39,338 nucleotides of DNA from the IMG/VR virus record IMGVR_UViG_3300032770_000054, positions 1 through 39,338 of that record. The stretch is one strand, 5' to 3'. The DNA comes from a virus. How positions within the stretch are numbered: position 1 is the stretch's first letter; every line of letters starts with the position of its first letter. The notes beneath the pieces are model-generated. The model saw only the letters and a program-made list of their open reading frames with translations, had not been told where the DNA came from and searched no databases. Below are positions 1 through 38,972 of this stretch, piece by piece. A program made the translations under genes and the position numbers.

Positions 1-97
1 GACTCATAGCGCCCCGAAAGTGGTGCGCCATTTGAGATCAGAGCACAGCCGCATTCACCGCAAGATGATGGCGGCCGGGGTAAGCGATGGAGACAGC
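1..97 (+). repeat. 97-bp direct repeat, copy 1
   Basis: Bases 1-97 match 38640-38736 without a mismatch. Similarity continues weakly past the repeat into the start of the next gene: both downstream proteins begin with a Val-Ser-Pro segment (MKVSPKS here, MSVSPES there). The repeat covers the end of one small gene and the ribosome site of the next. Confidence 0.9.
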
Positions 98-103
98 GAG
101 TGA
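2..103 (+). CDS. C-terminal end of small mosaic protein (partial)
   Basis: The window opens inside a gene. The visible 33 residues run from THSAPKVV to the tail GVSDGDSE and a TGA at 101-103. They are nearly identical to the end of the 98-residue protein at 38446-38742, so this is a paralogue of that gene. If the molecule is circular, the open gene at 39115-39338 continues in frame into this stretch (the split codon is 39337, 39338, 1). The function is unknown. Confidence 0.7.
   Translation, partial: THSAPKVVRHLRSEHSRIHRKMMAAGVSDGDSE
73..102 (+). promoter_or_regulatory. Start-associated repeat, copy a
   Basis: GGCCGGGGTAAGCGATGGAG followed by ACAGCGA lies directly before the GTG at 100. GGAG is the ribosome-binding core. 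The same bases encode the tail GVSDGDS of the upstream gene. Further copies are at 2336, 2554, 38712, 38953 and 39103. Confidence 0.7.
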
Positions 104-279
104 AGGTTTCTCCCAAATCAAGCAATCGTGACGAGTCTACTGCCGCGTATGCCAACAACATCGTCCTTCGCAACGTTGTCCAGACCGTGCTTCTGAAGGC
201 CGCGAATGGGCCGGTGCTGAAGGCGGATTACGACGCTGCAATCGACGCGCTCAACGAGCTTTTCAGGAGGGCAGCATGA
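100..279 (+). CDS. Small hypothetical protein (59 aa)
   Basis: Starts at GTG 100, chosen because the start-associated repeat places GGAG 7 bases upstream and the start overlaps the preceding stop (GTGA). The product is helical and soluble-looking, MKVSPKSSNRDES at its start and ALNELFRRAA at its end. Its first residues resemble those of the 38739 gene, which follows the other copy of the 97-bp repeat, so the two may be diverged paralogues. No known family recognised. Confidence 0.6.
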   Translation: MKVSPKSSNRDESTAAYANNIVLRNVVQTVLLKAANGPVLKADYDAAIDALNELFRRAA

Positions 280-304: not shown

Positions 305-643
305 TTGGAGTGCGGAGTCCTGCTGAGTTGGCTGGTCGCAATCGTTCTCACGTTTTCGCCGCACCATCACAGCCACCCCGGCTGGCATCCGTCCAAAGCG
401 TGGTTGCGGGCGTCGGACTGCATCGTCTACCACGAATCCCGATACCACTGGCACATCAACACGGGGAACGGCTATTACGGCGGCTTCCAGTTCCTCGAGT
501 CGACCTGGACGAGCGTTGGCGGACGCGGTCTACCTTCGGATGCGAGTCCGCGGGAGCAGCGGTACAGGGCGTGGCGGGTGTGGCGGCGTGACCACAATAG
601 CTGGATCGAGTGGGGAACAGCCGGTGTCTGCGGCCTTCGTTGA
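305..643 (+). CDS. Rpf-like transglycosylase (cell-wall lysozyme)
   Basis: The 112-residue product has a hydrophobic N-terminus (residues 4-18), then a resuscitation-promoting-factor-like transglycosylase domain. E44 in CIVYHESRYHW is in the place of the catalytic glutamate, followed by NGYYGGFQFLESTW and a terminal Cys (C109) that could pair with C39 as in Rpf proteins. Such enzymes cut the glycan strand of actinobacterial peptidoglycan. The start TTG 305 is the best in-frame choice, but its ribosome site is weak and translation may be coupled to the gene before. It lies far from the peptidase/holin lysis cassette at 29-31 kb, so it could serve entry or late lysis. Confidence 0.75.
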   Translation: MECGVLLSWLVAIVLTFSPHHHSHPGWHPSKAWLRASDCIVYHESRYHWHINTGNGYYGGFQFLESTWTSVGGRGLPSDASPREQRYRAWRVWRRDHNSWIEWGTAGVCGLR

Positions 644-2366
644 CGACCCCGACTTCACGCTCTATGTCGGCGATGTGTCCGAGGTGCTGCGCGAGCTGCC
701 GGACGAGTCGGTGCATTGTGTCGTCACCTCGCCGCCGTACTGGGGCCTGCGCGACTACGGCACCGGCGAGTGGGAGGGCGGCGACCCCGACTGCGACCAC
801 CTGACAGGACGCACCGCCCGCAATGACGGTGACAGAAACGGAACTGATGGCTTCGCCGGCAGTCGAAACCTAGAAGGCCACGCCGACATGGGAGCACTGG
901 CCTACCGCGATGTCTGCGGCAAGTGTGGCGCTCGTCGCGTCGACCACCAGATCGGCCTCGAACCCACACCGGACGCCTACGTCGCCCGGATGGTCGAAGT
1001 GTTCCGCGAGGTCCGTCGGGTGCTGCGGCGGGATGGGACGTGCTGGCTCAACCTCGGAGACAGCTACGCCGGAAGCGGCCCGAGCGGCGCGAGCTATCAA
1101 TCGGAGACGACGAAGCGCCGCGCTGAAGGAGACGGAACGGACGGCAAGTTTCGTGTCAGCAAGACGCTCGCAGATCGCGGCCTGACCTACGCCGAAAAGA
1201 AGCCCGTCGCGCCTCCCGGTCTGAAGCCGAAGGACCTCGTCGGCATCCCCTGGCGGGTCGCGTTCGCCCTCCAAGCAGACGGCTGGTATCTCCGCAGCGA
1301 CATCATCTGGGCGAAGCCGAACCCGATGCCCGAGAGCGTGACGGACAGGCCGACGAAAGCCCACGAGTTTCTTTTCTTGCTAACGAAGGCTCCGTGGCGT
1401 GGCCGCGAGCCCGGGCTGATTGAGAGTCGTCTGAGTGCCGAGGATGCGCGATGGCTCGCGCTGCTGGTCGATGCCGAAGGCAACATCTGTGTGAAGCGCA
1501 ACGCACGCGAAGGACGATCACCCAGCTACGGAGCGCAGATCGCCATCGGCTCGACATCGCGTGCGCTGCTCGAGCGAGCGCAGGAACTCGTCGGAGCCGG
1601 GAACATCCTCGAGCGCGGCGGCACGAACGCGCCGATGTTCTACTGGCAGGTGTCTAACAAGGTCGCACAGGATCTTCTCTACGCGATCTATCCGCATCTG
1701 ATCGTGAAGCCGCGTCAGGCCCGGATTGTGATCCACCTGGAATCGCTGCTCTATCACCGCGGCACACAAACAGCCAAGGAGCGCACCGCGGACGAGAACG
1801 CACAGCTCGAATCTCTCTGGCAACGCAACAAGGAGTGCAACCAGTTCGGCTCTCCTGACCTTTCGGATGTTCCTGAGCCGACGTACGGGAAGTACGGCCC
1901 CACGCGGTATTTCTATGACGCGGACGCGATCCGGGAGGAACACACCTCGACGCGATGGGGCGGTCGGTATCACACGCAGCCAGAGAACGGGAAATACACG
2001 CCTGACTCGGACATTCGGATTGCGGCAGCCGCCAAGGCTCGCGCGGATCGGCCAGACTTCGACCACTACCCCGACGGTGGCCGCAACGCTCGTTCGGTGT
2101 GGGAGATCGCCACCCAACCCTACCCTGAAGCGCATTTTGCGACGTTCCCGGAGGAGCTACCGAGACGATGCATCGCCGCGGGCTGCCCACAAGACGGCGT
2201 AATCCTCGATCCGTTCATGGGCAGCGGGACGACGGCTCTGGTGGCGCGGAGGCTTGGCCGCAAGAGCATCGGCATCGAGTTGAACCCTATCTATGCGGAG
2301 CTCGCGGCCAAGCGTTTGTCGCAGTTGAGTTTGTTGGCCGGGGTAAGCGATGGAGACACCACATGA
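624..2366 (+). CDS. DNA methyltransferase with internal LAGLIDADG-type domain
   Basis: Beta-type site-specific DNA methyltransferase (N4-cytosine or N6-adenine), 580 aa from GTG 624 (GGAA just upstream, overlapping the lysozyme gene by 20 bases). The catalytic motif TSPPYWG is at residues 35-41 and the AdoMet motif DPFMGSGTT at 529-537, the permuted order typical of the beta group. Between HEFLFLLTKA and RYFYDADAI, which are adjacent in ordinary relatives, lies an insert of about 150 residues. It holds WLALLVDAEGN (W277-N287), a LAGLIDADG-type motif. No intein ends (Cys/Ser start, terminal His-Asn) are evident, so this appears to be a permanently fused homing-endonuclease-like domain. Likely role: protecting phage DNA from restriction. 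Confidence 0.85.
   Translation: MSAAFVDDPDFTLYVGDVSEVLRELPDESVHCVVTSPPYWGLRDYGTGEWEGGDPDCDHLTGRTARNDGDRNGTDGFAGSRNLEGHADMGALAYRDVCGKCGARRVDHQIGLEPTPDAYVARMVEVFREVRRVLRRDGTCWLNLGDSYAGSGPSGASYQSETTKRRAEGDGTDGKFRVSKTLADRGLTYAEKKPVAPPGLKPKDLVGIPWRVAFALQADGWYLRSDIIWAKPNPMPESVTDRPTKAHEFLFLLTKAPWRGREPGLIESRLSAEDARWLALLVDAEGNICVKRNAREGRSPSYGAQIAIGSTSRALLERAQELVGAGNILERGGTNAPMFYWQVSNKVAQDLLYAIYPHLIVKPRQARIVIHLESLLYHRGTQTAKERTADENAQLESLWQRNKECNQFGSPDLSDVPEPTYGKYGPTRYFYDADAIREEHTSTRWGGRYHTQPENGKYTPDSDIRIAAAAKARADRPDFDHYPDGGRNARSVWEIATQPYPEAHFATFPEELPRRCIAAGCPQDGVILDPFMGSGTTALVARRLGRKSIGIELNPIYAELAAKRLSQLSLLAGVSDGDTT
1425..1860 (+). other. LAGLIDADG-like insertion inside the methyltransferase gene
   Basis: The in-frame insert begins near SRLSAEDARW and ends near SDVPEPTY. 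The acid of the single LAGLIDADG-type motif is D283. Following residues (YGAQIAIGSTSRALLERA, then FYWQVSNKVAQDLL) have the alpha-beta rhythm of homing endonuclease half-domains. One motif implies a homodimer or a DNA-recognition role. Boundaries are estimates from where the methyltransferase sequence resumes. Confidence 0.7.
2336..2365 (+). promoter_or_regulatory. Start-associated repeat, copy b
   Basis: GGCC at 2336 starts the repeat; GCGATGGAGACACCACATG occupies 2347-2365 and ends in the start codon of the next gene. It also encodes the methyltransferase tail LAGVSDGDTT. The ATGA overlap couples the two genes. Confidence 0.75.
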
Positions 2367-13461: not shown

Positions 13462-14976
13462 ATGGCCATCACCTATGTAGGCGAGCGCGGCACCGGGGCC
13501 GCCACTCAGGCGAACCCCGCCACGCTGTCTGTCTCGTCGAACGCCACAGCCGGGAACACGATCATCCTGATCCTCGGCTGTCGCAACCAGCGCAACCTCC
13601 CGTCCGGTGTGACGATCACGGACTCCAGGTCTAACACCTGGAATCTCGACAACGCCGAAGAGGACAACTCTCTCAACAACCTGTCTCTGATCGCGTCGAC
13701 GAAACAGGACGGCGGCACTCTCCAGTCCGGCGACACGATCACGGTCACGTTCGGAACCGCCCCGACAGGGAACGTCTGCTACTTCCTCGAAGAGTTCAGC
13801 GGCATCCAGACGTCCGCGTACGCCCTCGACCGGACCGGCCAGGGCATCGACGACGTCACCACGAACGGCGCCACCGTCACCGTCGGCAGCACAACCCGGC
13901 AGGGCGTCGAGCTCGCGATCGTCGGGATGATGGTGAACGGCGGCCCCGGAGCCGTCACTCGGGACGCCACCTGGTCGAACTTCACGACCAGCGAACAGTA
14001 CGACACCGTCACTGGAAAATCCCTAGACGCCCAGTACCAGATACAAGCGTCGAAGGGGACGCCGTCCGCCACATACACCTGGACTTCGCAGGGCTCGAGC
14101 CGTGTCATCACCACCTATTTCTCGGTCGTCAACGGGCACATCCTCACCGAGGGTGGCGACTACATCGACACCGAGGGCAGCGACAGGCTCGTCACAGAGG
14201 ACTTCGTTGCCGCTGGCGGCACACTCAACGCCACAGCAGGGTCGGTAGCGGTCACCGGGTCGCAGGCAACATTAGCCGTACACCGCGTCTTCACCGCCTC
14301 GGCCGGTTCTATCGCAGTAACCGGGGCGTCGGCCACCCCGAACGTCAAGATCACCGCCACAGCAGGATCTGCCGCGATCAACGGGACCGCGGCAACGTTC
14401 GCGATACACCGCACACTCTCCGCCGCCGCGGGGTCTGTGACGGTAACAGGCGCCGCGGCGACACCCAACGTTGGGATCACCGCCTCGGCTGGTTCGGTAG
14501 CGATCAACGGGAGCCCGGTCACCCCGGCTCCGAAGATCACCGCTACCGCAGGAGCCGTTGCTGTTACGGGGTTCCAGGCGACGCTCGCAGTCCACAGGGT
14601 CTTCTCGGCTCTACCCGGCACCTTCACCATCACCGGGGACAACGCGACCCCGAACGTTGCGATCACCGCGTCGGCGGGGTCTGTCGCGATCAACGGTACC
14701 GCCGCCACACCAGCCGTAGCCATCACCGCCTCGGCTGGTGCGGTAGTGATCACCGGGAGCCCGGTCACCTTCTCCGGACTCCATGCCTACACGCTCAACG
14801 CGACAGCCGCGTCTGTGACGGTTTCGGGTAACGCAGCAACCCTGACGAAACAGACCGCCGGGGGTGGCGGGGCGACACCCACAGATGGCGGCGCCGTCGA
14901 ACAGCAACGGATCAGCCAGTACGTGAGCCGGCTCCGCGCAGAAGACGACCTAGTCACTGTCCTAGCGGGCTTGTAA
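13462..14976 (+). CDS. Repeat-containing virion protein, paralogue of the 23043 gene
   Basis: The 504-residue product has an N-terminal domain of about 225 residues (AITYVGERGTGAATQANPAT, then WYxxLEEFSG-like YFLEEFSGIQTS and DDVTTNGATVTVG). That domain is clearly homologous to the whole protein at 23043-23747. It continues with HILTEGGDYIDTEGSDRLVTED, ten repeats of 20-24 residues (next entry), a Gly-rich hinge and a charged end (QYVSRLRAEDDLVTVLAGL). It is probably a head or neck fibre. ATG 13462 lies four bases after the previous stop. Confidence 0.7.
   Translation: MAITYVGERGTGAATQANPATLSVSSNATAGNTIILILGCRNQRNLPSGVTITDSRSNTWNLDNAEEDNSLNNLSLIASTKQDGGTLQSGDTITVTFGTAPTGNVCYFLEEFSGIQTSAYALDRTGQGIDDVTTNGATVTVGSTTRQGVELAIVGMMVNGGPGAVTRDATWSNFTTSEQYDTVTGKSLDAQYQIQASKGTPSATYTWTSQGSSRVITTYFSVVNGHILTEGGDYIDTEGSDRLVTEDFVAAGGTLNATAGSVAVTGSQATLAVHRVFTASAGSIAVTGASATPNVKITATAGSAAINGTAATFAIHRTLSAAAGSVTVTGAAATPNVGITASAGSVAINGSPVTPAPKITATAGAVAVTGFQATLAVHRVFSALPGTFTITGDNATPNVAITASAGSVAINGTAATPAVAITASAGAVVITGSPVTFSGLHAYTLNATAASVTVSGNAATLTKQTAGGGGATPTDGGAVEQQRISQYVSRLRAEDDLVTVLAGL
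14224..14853 (+). repeat. Ten tandem 20-24-residue AGSVAxxGxxAT repeats
   Basis: The units share the pattern ITASAGSVAINGTAATP with variants such as FTASAGSIAVTGASATPNVK and LNATAASVTVSGNAAT. Units ending in AVHRV or AIHRT occur as the first, third and sixth. The pattern of Ala/Ser/Thr/Val strands suggests small beta hairpins stacked into a rod. The DNA is diverged, so copy number is probably fairly stable. Confidence 0.75.
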
Positions 14977-20462: not shown

Positions 20463-23043
20463 CAGCCTGATAGTCGAGATTCTCGGCAACGGGAAACAGT
20501 TCGCCCAGTCGATCGACGAGGCGTCGAACAAGACCGCGAGGCTGGGGAAAGCCGCCAAGATCGCCGGGACAGCGATCCTCGGCGGCCTCGCCTACGGGCT
20601 CGACAAGTCCGTGGAAGCGGCCGTCAAGGCTCAGACGTCGACCGCGCGGATGGACCAGGCGTTTAAGCAGTCGGGGTTGTCGGCGAAGACGTTCGCAGGC
20701 CAGATCGACCATGCCGAACAGTCCGCGCGGAATCTGGGATTCGCGAACTCCGATGTGCGGGAGAGTCTCGGCAGCCTGGTGATCGCAACCAAGAGCGGCA
20801 AGGAGTCGTTCAAAGATCTCGGCATTGCTGAGGATCTCGCGAGGTTCAAACATATCGGCCTGACTGACTCGACCAAGATGTTGACGACAGCGATGGCCGG
20901 ATCGACGAAGGCCGTCCACGCGCTCGGCCTCAACATCATCCCCGTCACGTCTGCGGTGGACAGGGTCAACCAAGAGTTCAAGGTTCACACTGGCCGCGCC
21001 TACGAGGCGGCGAAGGCAACCGCCGAACTGGCCGACAAGCAGGCAACCGCGAAAGAGATCATCGCCGCAGTCACCGACAAGGTTCATGGACAGGCGCAAG
21101 CGTTCGCCGAGACGGCCGCCGGGAAGATGCAGACATTCAAGGCGCAACTCGAATCCATCGGCGAGTCCATCGGCCAGGTGGTTCTGCCGGCGCTCGAGTC
21201 GTTCGCCAGCGTGTTGGCCAAGGTTGCGGGCTGGCTGGCGCAACACCAGACAGTCGCCAAGATCCTTGTCGCCGGCCTCGCCGCGCTCGGGGTGACTCTG
21301 GTCGCGATCATTCCGCTGGTGACCGCGTTCGGGACGGCGCTCGCGTTCGTAGCAGCCAACCCGATCGTCCTCCTCGTCGCCGGTATCGCCCTCCTCGCCG
21401 GCGCAATCGCCGCTGCCGTCCTCGCCCCCCAAAAGTTCGAAGCCGCCCTCGAAAAAATGGGGGTGTCGGCGGGGACAGCTAAGGCCATCGTCACCGACCT
21501 TCAAGGCGTGTTCACGGATTTCAAGGCGGTGGTTGAGGCGCTGCTTCCCACCATCGAAGCGATATTCGAGGGGATCGTCGAGGAGATCAAGGGCGCGTTC
21601 ACCGTTATCAAGGGCATCTTCGACGTGATCGACGGGCTCCTCCACGGCAACTGGTCCCAAGTCTGGACCGGGCTCAAGGACATCGTCTCCGGCTCCCTCC
21701 AGGCGATTGAGGGGTTGTTGCAGGCTGCGACGGCGGTGTTGGGGTCGATCATGACCGCGATCCTCGGCGCGATGTGGTCGGCTGTCCAGTCCGGTTGGCA
21801 GACCATCGAGAACTTCTTCGGCGGGATCGGCGGCGACATCACCTCAGCTATCGGCGACCTCGGCAGCCTCCTCGCCACCGCAGGCACCGACGTCATCTCG
21901 GGCCTCTACAACGCCGCCGTCACAGCATGGAACACGGCTACCTCCTGGTTCAAAGGGATCCCGCAGGCCATCCTCGCCGCGATCGGCGGGGTAGCCACCT
22001 TGCTCGCCCAGAAAGGCCAAGACATTCTGACGGGACTCTGGAACGGCGCGAAGAACGTGTGGTCGAACGTGGCCAGTTGGGTCGGCGGGATCCCAGGCAA
22101 GATCAAGGACGCCATCGGCGGCGTAGCCCAACTCCTCACCGACAAAGGCAAGGCGGTCCTCAACAGTCTCTGGGACGGCGCGAAGGACGTCTGGAACACC
22201 GTCAAATCATGGTTCGGCGATCTTGGTTCCAAAGCCCGTACCGCTGTCGGTGATGTGGGACGCCTTCTCTATGACAAGGGCAAACAGGTCCTAACCGGAC
22301 TCTGGGACGGCGCCAAGAACGTGTGGGCGACTGTGACCGGCTGGTTTAGAGACCTCGGCGGCAAGATCAAGGACGCGCTTGGTGATCTCAGCCGCCTGCT
22401 TTACAGCTCCGGGATCGCGCTGCTCAAAGGACTCGAGAGCGGAATCGTTTCCGAGGCGAAACACCTCTACAGTGTCGTGTCTGGGATCGCCGGCAAGATC
22501 GCCGGCTTCTTCCCGCACTCGCCTGCGAAGGAGGGGCCGCTCTCGGTTCCGATCAACTGGGGCGCCTACCTGACCGATGGACTCTCCCAGGGAGGCGAAG
22601 TCCTCTATTCGGGGATGGCGGCGATCCTCGGCACCCCGCTCGCGAACATCATGAGCGCGGCTCTCTCCTCCACGATCGTGGGCGTGATCCAGGCGGCCGC
22701 AGCCGGGATCCCCGATCTGGTTACGGCGACACTCGGCCAGCAGGCCGCAGGCGCTCCGCATGGCACGCTCAACCCGACTCCGCCACCCACGAAAACAACA
22801 GGCGGGACAGGCCTCATCCCGCATATGGCTGTCGGCGGGATCGTCCGCACCCCAACCCTGGCGCTGATCGGCGAGAAAGGCCCCGAAGCCGTTGTCCCGC
22901 TCAACCAGATGAACGGCGGCCCGCCCGTCTACAACTTCAACTTCCCGAACTATGTGGGGTCGAAGCAGGAGTTGACGAACATGATCCAGCAGCAGCTGCT
23001 CCGATTGCAGCTGCGCGGCGGCCAAGCCCTCCTGCCCGGCTAA
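20455..23043 (+). CDS. Tape measure protein
   Basis: The 862-residue product sets tail length. It starts at TTG 20455, overlapping the frameshift product by eight bases. Order: helical N-terminus, a hydrophobic stretch near residues 272-330 (ILVAGLAALGVTLVAIIPLV), four exact-length 44-residue repeats (483-658), then FFPHSPAKEGPLSVPINWGA, typical of tape measure C-termini, and GEKGPEAVVPLNQM. Hydrophobic segments may help make a DNA passage through the host membrane. Confidence 0.9.
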   Translation: MPNSLIVEILGNGKQFAQSIDEASNKTARLGKAAKIAGTAILGGLAYGLDKSVEAAVKAQTSTARMDQAFKQSGLSAKTFAGQIDHAEQSARNLGFANSDVRESLGSLVIATKSGKESFKDLGIAEDLARFKHIGLTDSTKMLTTAMAGSTKAVHALGLNIIPVTSAVDRVNQEFKVHTGRAYEAAKATAELADKQATAKEIIAAVTDKVHGQAQAFAETAAGKMQTFKAQLESIGESIGQVVLPALESFASVLAKVAGWLAQHQTVAKILVAGLAALGVTLVAIIPLVTAFGTALAFVAANPIVLLVAGIALLAGAIAAAVLAPQKFEAALEKMGVSAGTAKAIVTDLQGVFTDFKAVVEALLPTIEAIFEGIVEEIKGAFTVIKGIFDVIDGLLHGNWSQVWTGLKDIVSGSLQAIEGLLQAATAVLGSIMTAILGAMWSAVQSGWQTIENFFGGIGGDITSAIGDLGSLLATAGTDVISGLYNAAVTAWNTATSWFKGIPQAILAAIGGVATLLAQKGQDILTGLWNGAKNVWSNVASWVGGIPGKIKDAIGGVAQLLTDKGKAVLNSLWDGAKDVWNTVKSWFGDLGSKARTAVGDVGRLLYDKGKQVLTGLWDGAKNVWATVTGWFRDLGGKIKDALGDLSRLLYSSGIALLKGLESGIVSEAKHLYSVVSGIAGKIAGFFPHSPAKEGPLSVPINWGAYLTDGLSQGGEVLYSGMAAILGTPLANIMSAALSSTIVGVIQAAAAGIPDLVTATLGQQAAGAPHGTLNPTPPPTKTTGGTGLIPHMAVGGIVRTPTLALIGEKGPEAVVPLNQMNGGPPVYNFNFPNYVGSKQELTNMIQQQLLRLQLRGGQALLPG
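21901..22428 (+). repeat. Four tandem 44-residue repeats in the tape measure protein
   Basis: Each 132-bp unit encodes the theme GLWNGAKNVWSNVASWVGG, then IPGKIKDAIGGVAQLL, DKGKAVLN. The four units all have 44 residues and conserved tryptophans at positions 10 and 16. Changing the number of units would change tail length. Confidence 0.8.
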
Positions 23044-23747
23044 TGCCTGTCACCTATGTAGCCGAACGCGGCACCGCGGCCGCCACACAGGCCAACCCCG
23101 CCACCCTCTCGGTCACGTCGAACTGTGTCGCCGGTAACACGCTGATCCTGTGCATGGGCTGCCGCGACGCGCGCAACCTCCCCTCCGGGATCACCATCGC
23201 CGACTCCCGGTCAAACACCTGGAACGCCGACATCGAGGAGCAGGACAACTCGCTCAACAACTATGCCGGGATCTGGTCCACCCGGTACGACGGGGGGACG
23301 CTCCAGAACGGTGACAGCCTCACCGTCACGTTCGGGACGAGCCCCACCGGCCCGATCTGTTACATGCTCGAAGAGTTCAACGGCCTCTTGATCAGCGGGG
23401 CATTGGACCAGACCGGCCGGGCGATCGACGACGTCACCACCAACGGCGCCACCGCCATATGTAACGGCCCGATCGCGCAGCCTGAGGAGCTCGGGATCGT
23501 CGCGATGATGGTCAACGGTGGGACGGGAGTTGTTACCCGGGACGCGACGTGGACGGATTTTACGACGAGCGAAGTACTCGATTCGACGAACGGCAAGACG
23601 CTCGACGCGCAGTACAAGATCATCACGACTGGCGGCACACCGTCCGCGACGTACACATGGTCGGCCCAGGGGGCTGCACGGGTGATCGCGACCTATCGGT
23701 CTGTGGGGTCGGCAGGCCGCCCCCACCGTATGCCCCTCGGAGTCTAA
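23043..23747 (+). CDS. Virion protein, paralogue of the 13462 N-terminal domain
   Basis: The 234-residue product (PVTYVAERGTAAATQANPAT, NLPSGITIADSRSNTWNADI, YMLEEFNG, AIDDVTTNGAT, TRDATWTDFTTSEVLD) aligns along nearly its full length with residues 1-225 of the 13462 protein, which lies on the head side. It lacks the ten-repeat tail and ends RSVGSAGRPHRMPLGV. A beta-sandwich (concanavalin-like) carbohydrate-binding shape is possible. ATG 23043 overlaps the tape measure stop by one base. Confidence 0.7.
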   Translation: MPVTYVAERGTAAATQANPATLSVTSNCVAGNTLILCMGCRDARNLPSGITIADSRSNTWNADIEEQDNSLNNYAGIWSTRYDGGTLQNGDSLTVTFGTSPTGPICYMLEEFNGLLISGALDQTGRAIDDVTTNGATAICNGPIAQPEELGIVAMMVNGGTGVVTRDATWTDFTTSEVLDSTNGKTLDAQYKIITTGGTPSATYTWSAQGAARVIATYRSVGSAGRPHRMPLGV

Positions 23748-32738: not shown

Positions 32739-32962
32739 GCGTCGTCCGGGTGTGGCGGCTGTTCGCGTACATGATCGACGACGAATCAGGCGACAGCGAC
32801 CATCGGCGGGCGCTCGCGGACTGGCAGATCGAAGACGAAGTCCGCCGGTGCGTCTCACGGGGCTTCGACATGATCATCCTGGACCGTGATCCGTCGGCGA
32901 CAGCCCAGTGGCCGACACGTCCCGGGGGAGCAGATGGCAACCAAGAAGGAACCGCCGCCTGA
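32735..32962 (+). CDS. Small hypothetical protein (75 aa)
   Basis: GTG 32735 overlaps the previous stop. The product begins VRVWRLFAYMIDDESGDSDH, with ADWQIEDEVRRCVSRGFDMI, ILDRDP. It has an alpha-beta look but no family was recognised. It overlaps the next gene by 29 bases. Confidence 0.55.
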   Translation: MSVVRVWRLFAYMIDDESGDSDHRRALADWQIEDEVRRCVSRGFDMIILDRDPSATAQWPTRPGGADGNQEGTAA

Positions 32963-33158
32963 AGACTTTCGGACTCCGCCGGACCTCACCGACGCCCAGC
33001 GCAGCCTTCGCCGTTGGCGGTGGAAAGAAGCCCGCAAGGCCGGGTTCTCGTTCGTGGAGGCTGACCTGTTCGCCGACAGTCACGCCGACATCGGCGAGCT
33101 CCGCCGCCTGAAAGAGAAGGGCTGTCCGGCCGCCTTGATCTTTCAGATCCTCAACTAA
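32934..33158 (+). CDS. Small conserved-looking protein at operon end (74 aa)
   Basis: GGGGGAG precedes ATG 32934. The product has a basic helix-turn-helix-like middle, RRWRWKEARKAGFSFVEADL, FADSHADIGELRRLKEKGCP, AALIFQIL. Proteins with this FADS-x-DIGxLRRLxxxGCP theme recur in phages of GC-rich bacteria. It is the last gene before the tandem hairpins. Confidence 0.6.
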   Translation: MATKKEPPPEDFRTPPDLTDAQRSLRRWRWKEARKAGFSFVEADLFADSHADIGELRRLKEKGCPAALIFQILN

Positions 33159-33277
33159 AGCTGGCCGTATCCCCCGTCGGGTATGGCCTCGAGCCCCCCG
33201 GTTTCGGCCGGGGGGCTTTCGACGTTAGCAGGAGCGAGTAAGAACGCGACGATGATCGCGCAGACGGCGTATCTCAT
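33155..33277 (-). CDS. Leftward small secreted/membrane peptide (40 aa)
   Basis: On the minus strand, ATG (33277-33275) is preceded by a consensus AAGGAGG (33289-33283) with 5-base spacing and ends at TAG (33157-33155). The product MRYAVCAIIVAFLLAPANVE then SPPAETGGLEAIPDGGYGQL has a signal-peptide-like start: Arg2, a hydrophobic core and small residues near APA. It is the only leftward gene found. A minus-strand promoter (33335-33307) is in place. The terminator hairpins are contained in its coding sequence. A role at the cell surface, such as blocking superinfection, is conceivable but unproven. Confidence 0.6.
   Translation of the reverse strand: MRYAVCAIIVAFLLAPANVESPPAETGGLEAIPDGGYGQL
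33163..33217 (+). terminator. Tandem hairpins ending the rightward late operon
   Basis: Hairpin one: GGCCGTATCC (33163-33172) with GGGTATGGCC (33179-33188), ten pairs including two G-U. Hairpin two: AGCCCCCCGG (33192-33201) with CCGGGGGGCT (33208-33217), ten perfect pairs, followed by TTC. The T-run is short, so termination may be partial or Rho-assisted. Both hairpins lie inside the leftward gene. Confidence 0.75.
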
Positions 33278-33287
33278 CTGTTCCTCC

Positions 33288-33316
33288 TTGACACCATCCG
33301 ACAGGCATGGTACATA
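33288..33316 (+). promoter_or_regulatory. Rightward sigma-70-type promoter
   Basis: TTGACA (33288-33293), a 17-base spacer, and TACATA (33311-33316). A start near 33322-33323 would leave a leader of only about 6 bases before ATG 33328, so the message is nearly leaderless, as is common in actinobacteria. Confidence 0.7.
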
Positions 33317-33331
33317 TGGGGACAGCGATGG
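33300..33331 (+). promoter_or_regulatory. Direct-repeat operator candidate
   Basis: GACAGGCATGG (33300-33310) and GACAGCGATGG (33321-33331) match in 9 of 11 bases and lie 21 bases apart, two helical turns. They flank both -10 boxes, so a protein on them would block both promoters. The adjacent ribbon-helix-helix protein is the obvious candidate binder. Confidence 0.45.
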
Positions 33332-33335
33332 TCAA
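33307..33335 (-). promoter_or_regulatory. Leftward promoter overlapping the rightward one
   Basis: Read on the minus strand: TTGACC (33335-33330), a 17-base spacer, and TACCAT (33312-33307). Its -10 overlaps the rightward -10 by two bases. A start near 33300 gives a leader of about 23 bases that carries AAGGAGG before the leftward ATG. Confidence 0.55.
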
Positions 33336-33492
33336 GATTCCCTACAAGTTCACATGCGGCGAGGACCTCGCCGAGTGGCTCGAGAGGAAGGCCGAGACCG
33401 AACAGCGGCCGATCGCGTCGATGATCCGCGTCCTCCTCTACGAAGCCAAGGTGCGTGAGGAAGAACGGGACAGGAAGGAGATGTTGGCGTGA
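33328..33492 (+). CDS. Ribbon-helix-helix DNA-binding protein (54 aa)
   Basis: The product MVKIPYKFTCGEDLAEWLER, KAETEQRPIASMIRVLLYEA, KVREEERDRKEM has a short N-terminal strand and two helices typical of Arc/CopG-type repressors, with the strand (KIPYKF) as DNA-contacting ribbon. ATG 33328 is preferred over ATG 33307, which lies upstream of the -10 box; GGGGA is placed 5 bases before 33328. It likely controls its own promoter and the leftward one. Confidence 0.65.
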   Translation: MVKIPYKFTCGEDLAEWLERKAETEQRPIASMIRVLLYEAKVREEERDRKEMLA

Positions 33493-33578
33493 CTGTCCGC
33501 GCGAAAGCCGCCACTCTTTTGGCTGTCCTGGTGTTTGCGAACCTCGCCATCTACGGGTTGAAGGAGATTCTGTCGTGA
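33489..33578 (+). CDS. Single-span membrane peptide (29 aa)
   Basis: GTG 33489 overlaps the previous stop (GTGA) and the end overlaps the next start (GTGA). The sequence MTVRAKAATLLAVLVFANLA then IYGLKEILS has one hydrophobic helix with positive residues ahead of it. Function unknown. Confidence 0.5.
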   Translation: MTVRAKAATLLAVLVFANLAIYGLKEILS

Positions 33579-34866: not shown

Positions 34867-35156
34867 CCCATCAACATCGCTACGGGTGGACGTCTGTCTG
34901 GTGCGGCATCACGGTTGGCGCGCATGTCGGCGTCTGTGAATGTGGTGCTCGCTGCGAAGAACTCACGGCCGCTGGGATGCAGCAACTCAACTGGTGGGGC
35001 CAACTCGGACTCGACTACCCAGAGGCCCGTGCCCGGATCTTGGACGGCGACTATCCGTGGGAGTTGACTCCCGACCATCGCCGCCCGACCATCGCCGCCC
35101 GACCATCGCCGCCCGACCATCGCCGCCGCCGGCCGCGTCTTGGGAGGGCCGCGTGA
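34863..35156 (+). CDS. Small protein with frame-cycling repeat tail (97 aa)
   Basis: ATG 34863 overlaps the methyltransferase stop (ATGA). The first part is Cys/Trp-rich (TSVWCGITVGAHVGVCECGA, RCEELTAAGMQQLNWWGQ). The tail is encoded by four 14-bp units, so residues cycle through PDHRR, PTIAA, RPSP, PDHRR. Gain or loss of one unit would shift the frame and change or extend the end of the protein. Confidence 0.55.
   Translation: MTHQHRYGWTSVWCGITVGAHVGVCECGARCEELTAAGMQQLNWWGQLGLDYPEARARILDGDYPWELTPDHRRPTIAARPSPPDHRRRRPRLGRAA
35070..35125 (+). repeat. Four perfect tandem copies of a 14-bp unit
   Basis: CCCGACCATCGCCG occurs four times in a row with no mismatch. Because 14 is not a multiple of 3, slippage would alter the reading frame of the 34863 gene near its 3' end and its overlap with the next start. 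Confidence 0.9.
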
Positions 35157-35511: not shown

Positions 35512-36302
35512 GCGTCATAGACGAAAGGCTCGTCTACCTCGGACCACTCAAGCTCGAGAAAGGCTCGCACGATCCGCCGAACAACGGGCTCGTCCACGCC
35601 TGCGTCATGGAAGCCGTCGCCTATGTGGCCGGGGAACCGTTCTCGGATCATCCCGAGTGCGCGTCACCCGTTCTTGGCGCGTTCCTGCGGTCGTGGAACG
35701 ACTCGCTCCTGGACGCGGACAGGCAGATGTTGAAGCCGCTGATCCCGCGGCTCGTCGGCACGAAAGCACCCGCCAGGGTTGAGGAGAAGCGGGCGTGGAT
35801 GGCGACCGACTGGCTCGCCCGCGAATGCGCACCCGCGTTCCTGCGGCTCGCTGGGCTGACCGAGCATGCCGAGACGCTGGAGGGGCTCGCGGCGTTGACG
35901 ACCGCGAAGCGCGCCGAGAAGGCACAGCCTCAGTTGACCGCAGCCAGGGACGCAGCCAGGGCCGCAGCCTGGGACGCAGCCTGGGCCGCAGCCGGGGCCG
36001 CAGCCAGGGACGCAGCCTGGGCCGCAGCCAGGGACGCAGCCAGGGCCGCAGCCGGGGACGCAGCCTGGGCCGCAGCCGGGGACGCAGCCTGGGCCGCAGC
36101 CGGGGACGCAGCCGGGGACGCAGCCGGGGACGCAGCCGGGGACGCAGCCTGGGCCGCAGCCTGGGCCGCAGCCTGGGACGCAGCCTGGGCCGCAGCCGGG
36201 GCCGCAGCCAGGGCTGCAGCCAGGGCCGCACTCGAACCGACCGTCAAGCAGCTACAGCAGTCGGCGCTGCTGCTGGTCGACCGGATGATCGAGGCCAGAT
36301 GA
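35508..36302 (+). CDS. Conserved phage protein with Ala-rich 12-bp repeat domain
   Basis: The 264-residue product from GTG 35508 (AAGGAGACG upstream) has an N-terminal domain of about 140 residues (PPNNGLVHACVMEAVAYVAG, PECASPVLGAFLRSWNDSLL, PLIPRLVGTKAPARVEEKRA, WMATDWLARECAPAFLRLAG) and a tail of 24 four-residue units AxxA (next entry), then VKQLQQSALLLVDRMIEAR. The N-terminal theme occurs in other phages of GC-rich bacteria, next to recombination genes. Function unknown. Confidence 0.7.
   Translation: MSVIDERLVYLGPLKLEKGSHDPPNNGLVHACVMEAVAYVAGEPFSDHPECASPVLGAFLRSWNDSLLDADRQMLKPLIPRLVGTKAPARVEEKRAWMATDWLARECAPAFLRLAGLTEHAETLEGLAALTTAKRAEKAQPQLTAARDAARAAAWDAAWAAAGAAARDAAWAAARDAARAAAGDAAWAAAGDAAWAAAGDAAGDAAGDAAGDAAWAAAWAAAWDAAWAAAGAAARAAARAALEPTVKQLQQSALLLVDRMIEAR
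35940..36227 (+). repeat. 24 tandem 12-bp units encoding Ala-Ala-[R/W/G]-[D/A]
   Basis: Every unit reads GCA GCC nGG GnC, where the first n is A, T or G (never C) and the second is A or C; one unit ends GCT. Variation is confined to these two bases. The encoded tail is Ala-rich with Arg, Trp or Gly at one site and Asp or Ala at the next, likely helical. Copy number is probably unstable. Confidence 0.85.
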
Positions 36303-38449: not shown

Positions 38450-38742
38450 CCGACCACGCCGACACGATCCGCCGCGTGCTGAGTAGCCTCGGCCTCGTTC
38501 GTTACGGACGCTTTGAGCGACCGCAGGCCCAGGAAGGACTAGATGCCCTGGACGCGCTTGTGGCCGAGAACCAGCGTCTAAGAGACGCGCTGGAGCAGGC
38601 GCTAGGCGTTATGGGTTACTCGGCGCAGACGCTCACCCTGACTCATAGCGCCCCGAAAGTGGTGCGCCATTTGAGATCAGAGCACAGCCGCATTCACCGC
38701 AAGATGATGGCGGCCGGGGTAAGCGATGGAGACAGCCAGTGA
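38446..38742 (+). CDS. Mosaic coiled-coil protein with GVSDGDS tail (98 aa)
   Basis: The product starts TDHADTIRRVLSSLGLVRYG, continues GLDALDALVAENQRLRDALE and ends HSAPKVVRHLRSEHSRIHRK, MMAAGVSDGDSQ. Its last 97 coding bases up to the final codons are identical to 1-97 of the window. The central DNA matches the 2363 gene. It is the best full-length example of the mosaic family. Function unknown. Confidence 0.65.
   Translation: MTDHADTIRRVLSSLGLVRYGRFERPQAQEGLDALDALVAENQRLRDALEQALGVMGYSAQTLTLTHSAPKVVRHLRSEHSRIHRKMMAAGVSDGDSQ
38640..38736 (+). repeat. 97-bp direct repeat, copy 2
   Basis: Identical to 1-97. It includes the end of the 98-residue gene and most of the start-associated repeat of the gene that follows. 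Confidence 0.9.
38712..38741 (+). promoter_or_regulatory. Start-associated repeat, copy d
   Basis: GGCCGGGGTAAGCGATGGAG, then ACAGCCA and GTG 38739. It has the same 27-base distance from GGCC to the start codon as copies a and b. Confidence 0.7.
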
Positions 38743-38972
38743 GTGTTTCGCCCGAATCAGCCGCGATGCCGCGTCTCATCCGCTCCAGGCTAGAGGACGC
38801 GAGGGATACGGCCCTGCGGAACATCGAGTACCTGCGGAAGGAGAACGGGAAAGCGGTCGTCAAGATCGACGCGCTCCGCGCTGAGATCGCCCACAACGAC
38901 GCCGAGATCGCTGACAACGAAGCTGCGGCGGCGGAAGCTAAGCGGCTGCTGGGCGATGGAGACACCACATGA
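38739..38972 (+). CDS. Small coiled-coil protein with GDGDTT tail (77 aa)
   Basis: GTG 38739 is set by the start-associated repeat and overlaps the previous stop. The product SVSPESAAMPRLIRSRLEDA, RDTALRNIEYLRKENGKAVV, KIDALRAEIAHNDAEIADNE is a regular coiled coil. It ends AAAAEAKRLLGDGDTT, a shortened version of the family tail. Function unknown. Confidence 0.6.
   Translation: MSVSPESAAMPRLIRSRLEDARDTALRNIEYLRKENGKAVVKIDALRAEIAHNDAEIADNEAAAAEAKRLLGDGDTT
38953..38971 (+). promoter_or_regulatory. Start-associated repeat, copy e (short)
   Basis: GCGATGGAGACACCACATG, identical to the end of copy b, without the GGCCGGGGTAA part. It ends in ATG 38969-38971. Confidence 0.7.

What the first reader, a model, noticed from the sequence alone, without database searches (positions are those of the whole stretch)
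33155..33277. Hidden leftward gene for a 40-residue signal-peptide-like protein
Every other gene reads rightward, yet here the minus strand has a consensus AAGGAGG 5 bases before an ATG, a promoter-like TTGACC-N17-TACCAT further up, and a product with a textbook hydrophobic signal core. It is short enough to be missed by gene callers. Small surface peptides made from a divergent promoter often act in superinfection exclusion or lysogeny-like states; that role is inference.
Basis: partly seen in the sequence, partly recalled or inferred. Interest (0 to 1): 0.75.

Follow-up and report, generated by a model that had tools for sequence, protein, structure and literature searches.

The report
Short leftward gene for exported phage peptide
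A phage from an uncultured sample very probably carries one tiny gene read against all its neighbours, encoding a 40-residue membrane or secreted peptide in the spot where related phages keep their dormancy-control genes; what the peptide does is not known.

Summary
The minus strand at 33277-33155 encodes MRYAVCAIIVAFLLAPANVESPPAETGGLEAIPDGGYGQL*, with AAGGAGG 5 nt before the ATG and TTGACC-N17-TACCAT upstream. No feature is rare alone in 39 kb, but their coincidence is: of about 518 ribosome-site-preceded ORFs in 120 simulated strands, none had as good a promoter and none had even a weaker hydrophobic N-terminus (cut-off 2.2; ours 2.69). Codon usage resembles this phage's genes. I think the gene is real (about 0.75).

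Correction: the 3' half of the ORF lies in the rightward gene's intrinsic terminator, the ribosome site abuts a rightward -35, and the two promoters share overlapping -10s. A non-coding divergent transcript remains the main rival.

Context: in distant syntenic IMG/VR relatives this slot starts a leftward lysogeny module (HTH gene with a two-TM protein in L003; HTH gene and integrase in L004). The window record has neither integrase nor HTH_3 repressor. Best reading: the only leftward gene left in a lysogeny-module slot, making a membrane or secreted peptide; superinfection exclusion is the leading but untested role. No conserved homologue exists in the collections searched; apparent similarity to the L003 membrane protein is not significant.

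The parts
33155..33277 (-). 40-aa ORF: n-region MRY, hydrophobic core AVCAIIVAFLL, possible signal-peptidase site APA|N, short acidic tail; helix 2-18 in a single-sequence AlphaFold model
   Evidence: the cleavage site is my reading of the AxA rule, not a SignalP run
33283..33289 (-). Ribosome-binding site AAGGAGG, 5 nt before the ATG (shares 2 bases with the rightward -35)
33307..33335 (-). Leftward sigma70-like promoter TTGACC-N17-TACCAT; predicted start about 33300, 5' leader about 22 nt
   Evidence: start site inferred
33288..33316 (+). Rightward sigma70-like promoter TTGACA-N17-TACATA, -10 overlapping the leftward -10; predicted start about 33323
   Evidence: rank 6 of both strands; start site inferred
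33192..33222 (+). Rightward intrinsic terminator (AGCCCCCCGG stem, short T run) after the 74-aa gene; lies inside the minus ORF
33160..33194 (-). Second hairpin (GGCCATACCC...GGATACGGCC) followed by TTTAGTTG; weak candidate leftward terminator at the end of the ORF
32934..33158 (+). Convergent rightward 74-aa gene, conserved in L002 and L003 (about 50% identity); its stop overlaps the minus ORF's stop
33328..33492 (+). Divergent rightward gene, probable ribbon-helix-helix (CopG/Arc-like) regulator
   Evidence: Pfam RHH_5 E 3e-4 and RHH_1 E 2e-3, both under the curated cut-off; structure search did not confirm it
33489..33578 (+). 29-aa single-TM peptide; homologous to the peptide after the Cro-like gene in L003
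   Evidence: E 0.002; 0 of 500 shuffles

Best explanation
The ORF is a real, independently transcribed gene. RNA polymerase starts leftward at about 33300 from TTGACC-N17-TACCAT; the 22-nt leader carries a perfect ribosome site; the product is exported or inserted through its N-terminal hydrophobic helix, leaving either a single-pass membrane peptide or a secreted peptide of about 23 residues. It lies where related phages start their leftward lysogeny module, opposite a rightward early operon headed by a small probable DNA-binding regulator, and is the only leftward gene seen in this phage. The most likely job is a cell-envelope function in the infected or carrier cell, with superinfection exclusion (blocking DNA entry or adsorption) the leading candidate. 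Shown: the ORF, its signals, gene-like codon use and the slot's contents in relatives. Inferred: transcription, translation, export, function, and that the slot is a reduced lysogeny module.
For: Coincidence of ribosome site, promoter and hydrophobic N-terminus far beyond simulation; codon-position GC and codon score of a gene; the ORF and its signals fill the gap between the two neighbours and its stop overlaps the convergent gene's stop. L003 has the same upstream genes, then leftward from beside a terminator a small two-TM protein and an HTH repressor, facing a Cro-like gene and a TM peptide shared with the window; L004 has a leftward HTH gene and integrase after the same exonuclease. Precedent: Ltp of TP-J34 and Sie2009 are small exported or membrane proteins of lysogeny modules (PMC3952083; PMC7693887); repressor-linked membrane proteins act in defence in Gordonia and mycobacterial phages (PMC6426606).
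Against: No homologue and no conservation evidence. Similarity to the L003 membrane protein is not significant: it is one of 4 among 146 hydrophobic segments reaching that score. L002 has no leftward gene in the slot. The 3' half sits on terminator hairpins. The record lacks integrase and HTH_3 repressor, so a prophage role is doubtful.
Confidence: 0.55

Rival explanations
1. Non-coding divergent transcription. The intergenic stretch is built for rightward traffic: a terminator after the 74-aa gene and a promoter for the regulator. The shared, near-symmetrical -10 fires leftward as a by-product; the ORF is an accident, with CCTCC beside the rightward TTGACA looking like a ribosome site.
For: Rightward TTGACA is a perfect -35 and its -10 overlaps the leftward one; predicted starts about 23 bp apart fall in the 7-25 bp range that defines bidirectional promoters (PMC10268837). 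Terminator inside the ORF. Single features are not rare window-wide.
Against: The leftward promoter scores better than the rightward one. The joint ribosome site and hydrophobic N-terminus were not met in 200,000 simulations. Codon use is gene-like also in the first 20 codons, outside the hairpins.
Confidence: 0.22
2. Relic of a lysogeny-module membrane protein: the ORF is a decayed, truncated piece of a protein like that of L003, still framed but no longer selected.
For: Same slot, same orientation, same place against the terminator; window lacks integrase and HTH_3 repressor that relatives have; DNA alignment beside the terminator, 1.3% of base shuffles as good.
Against: Protein similarity not above that of unrelated hydrophobic segments. 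A relic would not be expected to keep a 7/7 ribosome site and the window's best-scoring promoter.
Confidence: 0.13
3. Secreted signalling or modulator peptide: the 23-residue tail is released and signals infection, the divergent regulator being the responder, by analogy with arbitrium AimP.
For: Length, signal-peptide-like N-terminus and place beside a regulator recall AimP-type pre-propeptides (my knowledge; papers listed, not read).
Against: No AimR-like gene adjoins it; the tail overlaps terminator hairpins; no homologue.
Confidence: 0.05

Closest known systems
Ltp superinfection-exclusion lipoprotein of Streptococcus thermophilus phage TP-J34 (PMC3952083)
   Same: Exported protein encoded leftward against an otherwise rightward genome, in the lysogeny-module position facing cro
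   Different: About 142 aa, a lipoprotein; here 40 aa, no cysteine at the likely cleavage site, no repressor or integrase seen, no homology shown
Sie2009-type membrane proteins of lactococcal P335 phages (PMC7693887)
   Same: Small, hydrophobic N-terminus, lysogeny module
   Different: Between integrase and repressor of a temperate phage; tested function; no homology shown here
Leftward two-TM protein of IMG/VR relative L003 (7504-7289, minus)
   Same: Syntenic slot, orientation, position against the terminator
   Different: 71 aa, two TM helices, adjoined by an HTH repressor gene; similarity not significant
Bidirectional bacterial promoters (PMC10268837)
   Same: Opposed promoters with overlapping -10s, predicted starts about 23 bp apart
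   Different: Most common spacing is 18 bp; here each side has its own good -35; starts unmapped

Membership tests
Superinfection-exclusion protein of a lysogeny module | Membrane-inserted or exported small protein | tested here: inconclusive
   Hydrophobic N-terminus and predicted helix 2-18; no topology assay
Superinfection-exclusion protein of a lysogeny module | Gene lies in a lysogeny module with integrase and repressor | tested here: not met
   No PF00589, PF00239 or PF01381 match in this record; only the syntenic slot matches, and the record may be incomplete
Superinfection-exclusion protein of a lysogeny module | Expression blocks infection by other phages | not testable with these tools
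   Needs a plating assay
Sec signal-peptide-bearing protein | Positive n-region, hydrophobic core, AxA cleavage site | tested here: inconclusive
   Pattern present by eye (R2, AVCAIIVAFLL, APA); no SignalP-type tool available
Arbitrium-type signal peptide (AimP) | Adjacent AimR receptor gene | tested here: not met
   The divergent neighbour encodes a 54-aa RHH-like protein; AimR is a large TPR protein (my knowledge)
Bidirectional promoter | Two mapped starts 7-25 bp apart on opposite strands | not testable with these tools
   Only predicted starts, about 23 bp apart
Ribbon-helix-helix regulator (neighbour gene) | Match to RHH profiles above the curated cut-off | tested here: not met
   RHH_5 20.9 bits against a cut-off of 26; RHH_1 18.3 against 20.5; so 'probable' only

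The most novel reading that the evidence does not exclude
A phage that has lost integrase and repressor has kept, in the emptied lysogeny slot, a single promoter-driven gene for a secreted peptide of about 23 residues that works during lytic infection as a signal or exclusion factor under control of a divergent ribbon-helix-helix regulator.
Probability: 0.07. Interest if true: 0.75.

Novelty: new member of a known kind. Interest (0 to 1): 0.38.

Why it matters
Genes under 50 codons on the minority strand are routinely missed. This case shows how joint evidence (ribosome site, promoter, codon use, hydrophobic core, syntenic slot) can raise one above noise, and it marks a lysogeny-module position where small envelope-acting proteins deserve a look even in phages that seem to have lost lysogeny.

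Tried and rejected
Homology of the peptide to the L003 leftward membrane protein: looked good against shuffles, but among 146 hydrophobic segments four (it included) reach that score, so dropped. A better-scoring hit, L093 2386-2207 minus (score 43), is antisense to a rightward ORF and was rejected as chance. Operator-like direct repeats GACAGNNATGGT at 33300 and 33321: by my own rough estimate such a pair arises by chance in about one of four such regions, and the repeat finder does not report it. Non-coding RNA family: nothing above threshold. Closer relatives: a 99% terminase contig (L005) does not reach this region; wider terminase-based relatives gave no exonuclease or 74-aa gene match; bacterial genomes gave none; annotated phages gave none for the regulator, 74-aa gene or exonuclease, and only chance-level hits for the peptide. 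PDB searches for the regulator: nothing.

Full report
What is there. The finding's coordinates and translation are right. Reading leftward from 33335: TTGACC, 17 nt, TACCAT (33312-33307), then a predicted start near 33300, AAGGAGG (33289-33283), 5 nt, ATG at 33277, 40 codons, TAG at 33157-33155. The stop overlaps that of the convergent rightward 74-aa gene (32934-33158).

Chance. Over the whole window there are three minus-strand starts with a ribosome site of at least six matching bases and an ORF of at least 30 aa; random sequence gives 4.3 per strand, so the ribosome site alone means little. Nor is a best promoter of 13.0 bits unusual for a random 39-kb strand (33%). The combination is unusual: of about 518 such starts in 120 simulated strands, none had a promoter of 12.9 or more within 80 nt and none a hydrophobic N-terminus of 2.2 or more; this ORF has 13.0 and 2.69. 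Simulating the 172-nt region 200,000 times gave no case with both a good ribosome site and such an N-terminus. Codon-position GC 0.66/0.49/0.76 matches this phage's genes, and the codon score is gene-like in both halves, though the second half is shaped by hairpins. A control found in the relative's record, an antisense stretch with a signal-peptide look-alike behind a G-rich run, warns that such things do occur by chance when enough sequence is examined.

The ORF's 3' half carries a strong rightward terminator hairpin (33192-33217 with a short T run) and a second hairpin. On the plus strand TTGACA(33288)-N17-TACATA is a good rightward promoter (rank 6 of both strands). Its -35 shares two bases with the leftward ribosome site, and the two -10s overlap. 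The predicted starts are about 23 bp apart, inside the 7-25 bp range used to define bidirectional promoters (PMC10268837). The rightward product (33328-33492) is a likely ribbon-helix-helix regulator, but below Pfam's cut-offs and unconfirmed by structure.

Relatives. The window is a whole IMG/VR record with an actinophage-like terminase at most about 36% identical to those of isolated phages. Three distant relatives show the locus or part of it. L003 (39.8-kb record) keeps the exonuclease, two small genes and the 74-aa gene in order, then a terminator-like hairpin, then leftward a two-TM 71-aa protein and an HTH repressor, facing a Cro-like gene and a TM peptide homologous to the window's 33489-33578. 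L004 has, after the same exonuclease and further rightward genes, a leftward HTH gene (weak match) and a tyrosine integrase. L002 has an HTH gene rightward and no leftward gene in the slot. The window itself has no tyrosine integrase, serine recombinase or HTH_3 match, though the record may be incomplete. So the slot is a lysogeny or regulatory module with fast-changing content, and the window carries only this small leftward ORF there.

Homology. No relative of the peptide was found in Pfam, PHROGs, NCBIfam, annotated phages or, for its exact core AIIVAFLLAPA, IMG/VR. Its resemblance to the second TM helix of the L003 protein is not above that of unrelated hydrophobic segments. There is therefore no conservation evidence for or against the frame.

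Mechanism. Most likely a leftward promoter makes a short mRNA, translated into a peptide that inserts in or crosses the membrane. By position and size it resembles exclusion proteins of lysogeny modules such as Ltp and Sie2009 and repressor-linked defence genes of actinophages. Only the DNA features and synteny are shown; expression, export and exclusion are inference. The main rival is a non-coding divergent transcript of the rightward promoter.

Verdict. Probably a real, short, overlooked gene (about 0.75), ordinary in kind, function open.

Noticed in passing
window 77, 2340, 2558, 33318, 38716 (+): GGGG[TA][AC]AGCGATGG occurs five times, all on the plus strand, expected 0.11. It includes the start codon of the regulator gene at 33328 and of the gene at 2568 and may mark gene starts elsewhere: a start-associated sequence that may share control or translation signals.
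   Followed up: partly
window 516-2366 (+): N4/N6 DNA methylase gene with an in-frame insert (about residues 300-460) matching an HNH-family profile and weakly LAGLIDADG, between conserved methylase parts; no obvious intein splice residues by eye.
   Followed up: partly
window 33489-33578 (+): 29-aa TM peptide conserved in L003 (8321-8446), itself easily missed by gene callers.
   Followed up: partly
window 35855-36298 (+): About 25 head-to-tail 12-bp repeats overlapping the reading frames at and before the Erf-like annealing protein; also a 14-bp array at 35070-35125.
   Followed up: no
window 13462-13761 and 23043-23342 (+): 300-nt stretches 74% alike, 9.6 kb apart, at the starts of two genes of the structural region: a duplicated module.
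   Followed up: no
window 1-120 and 38640-38759 (+): 96% identical 120-nt repeat near the two ends of the record; may bear on genome ends or duplicated small genes.
   Followed up: no
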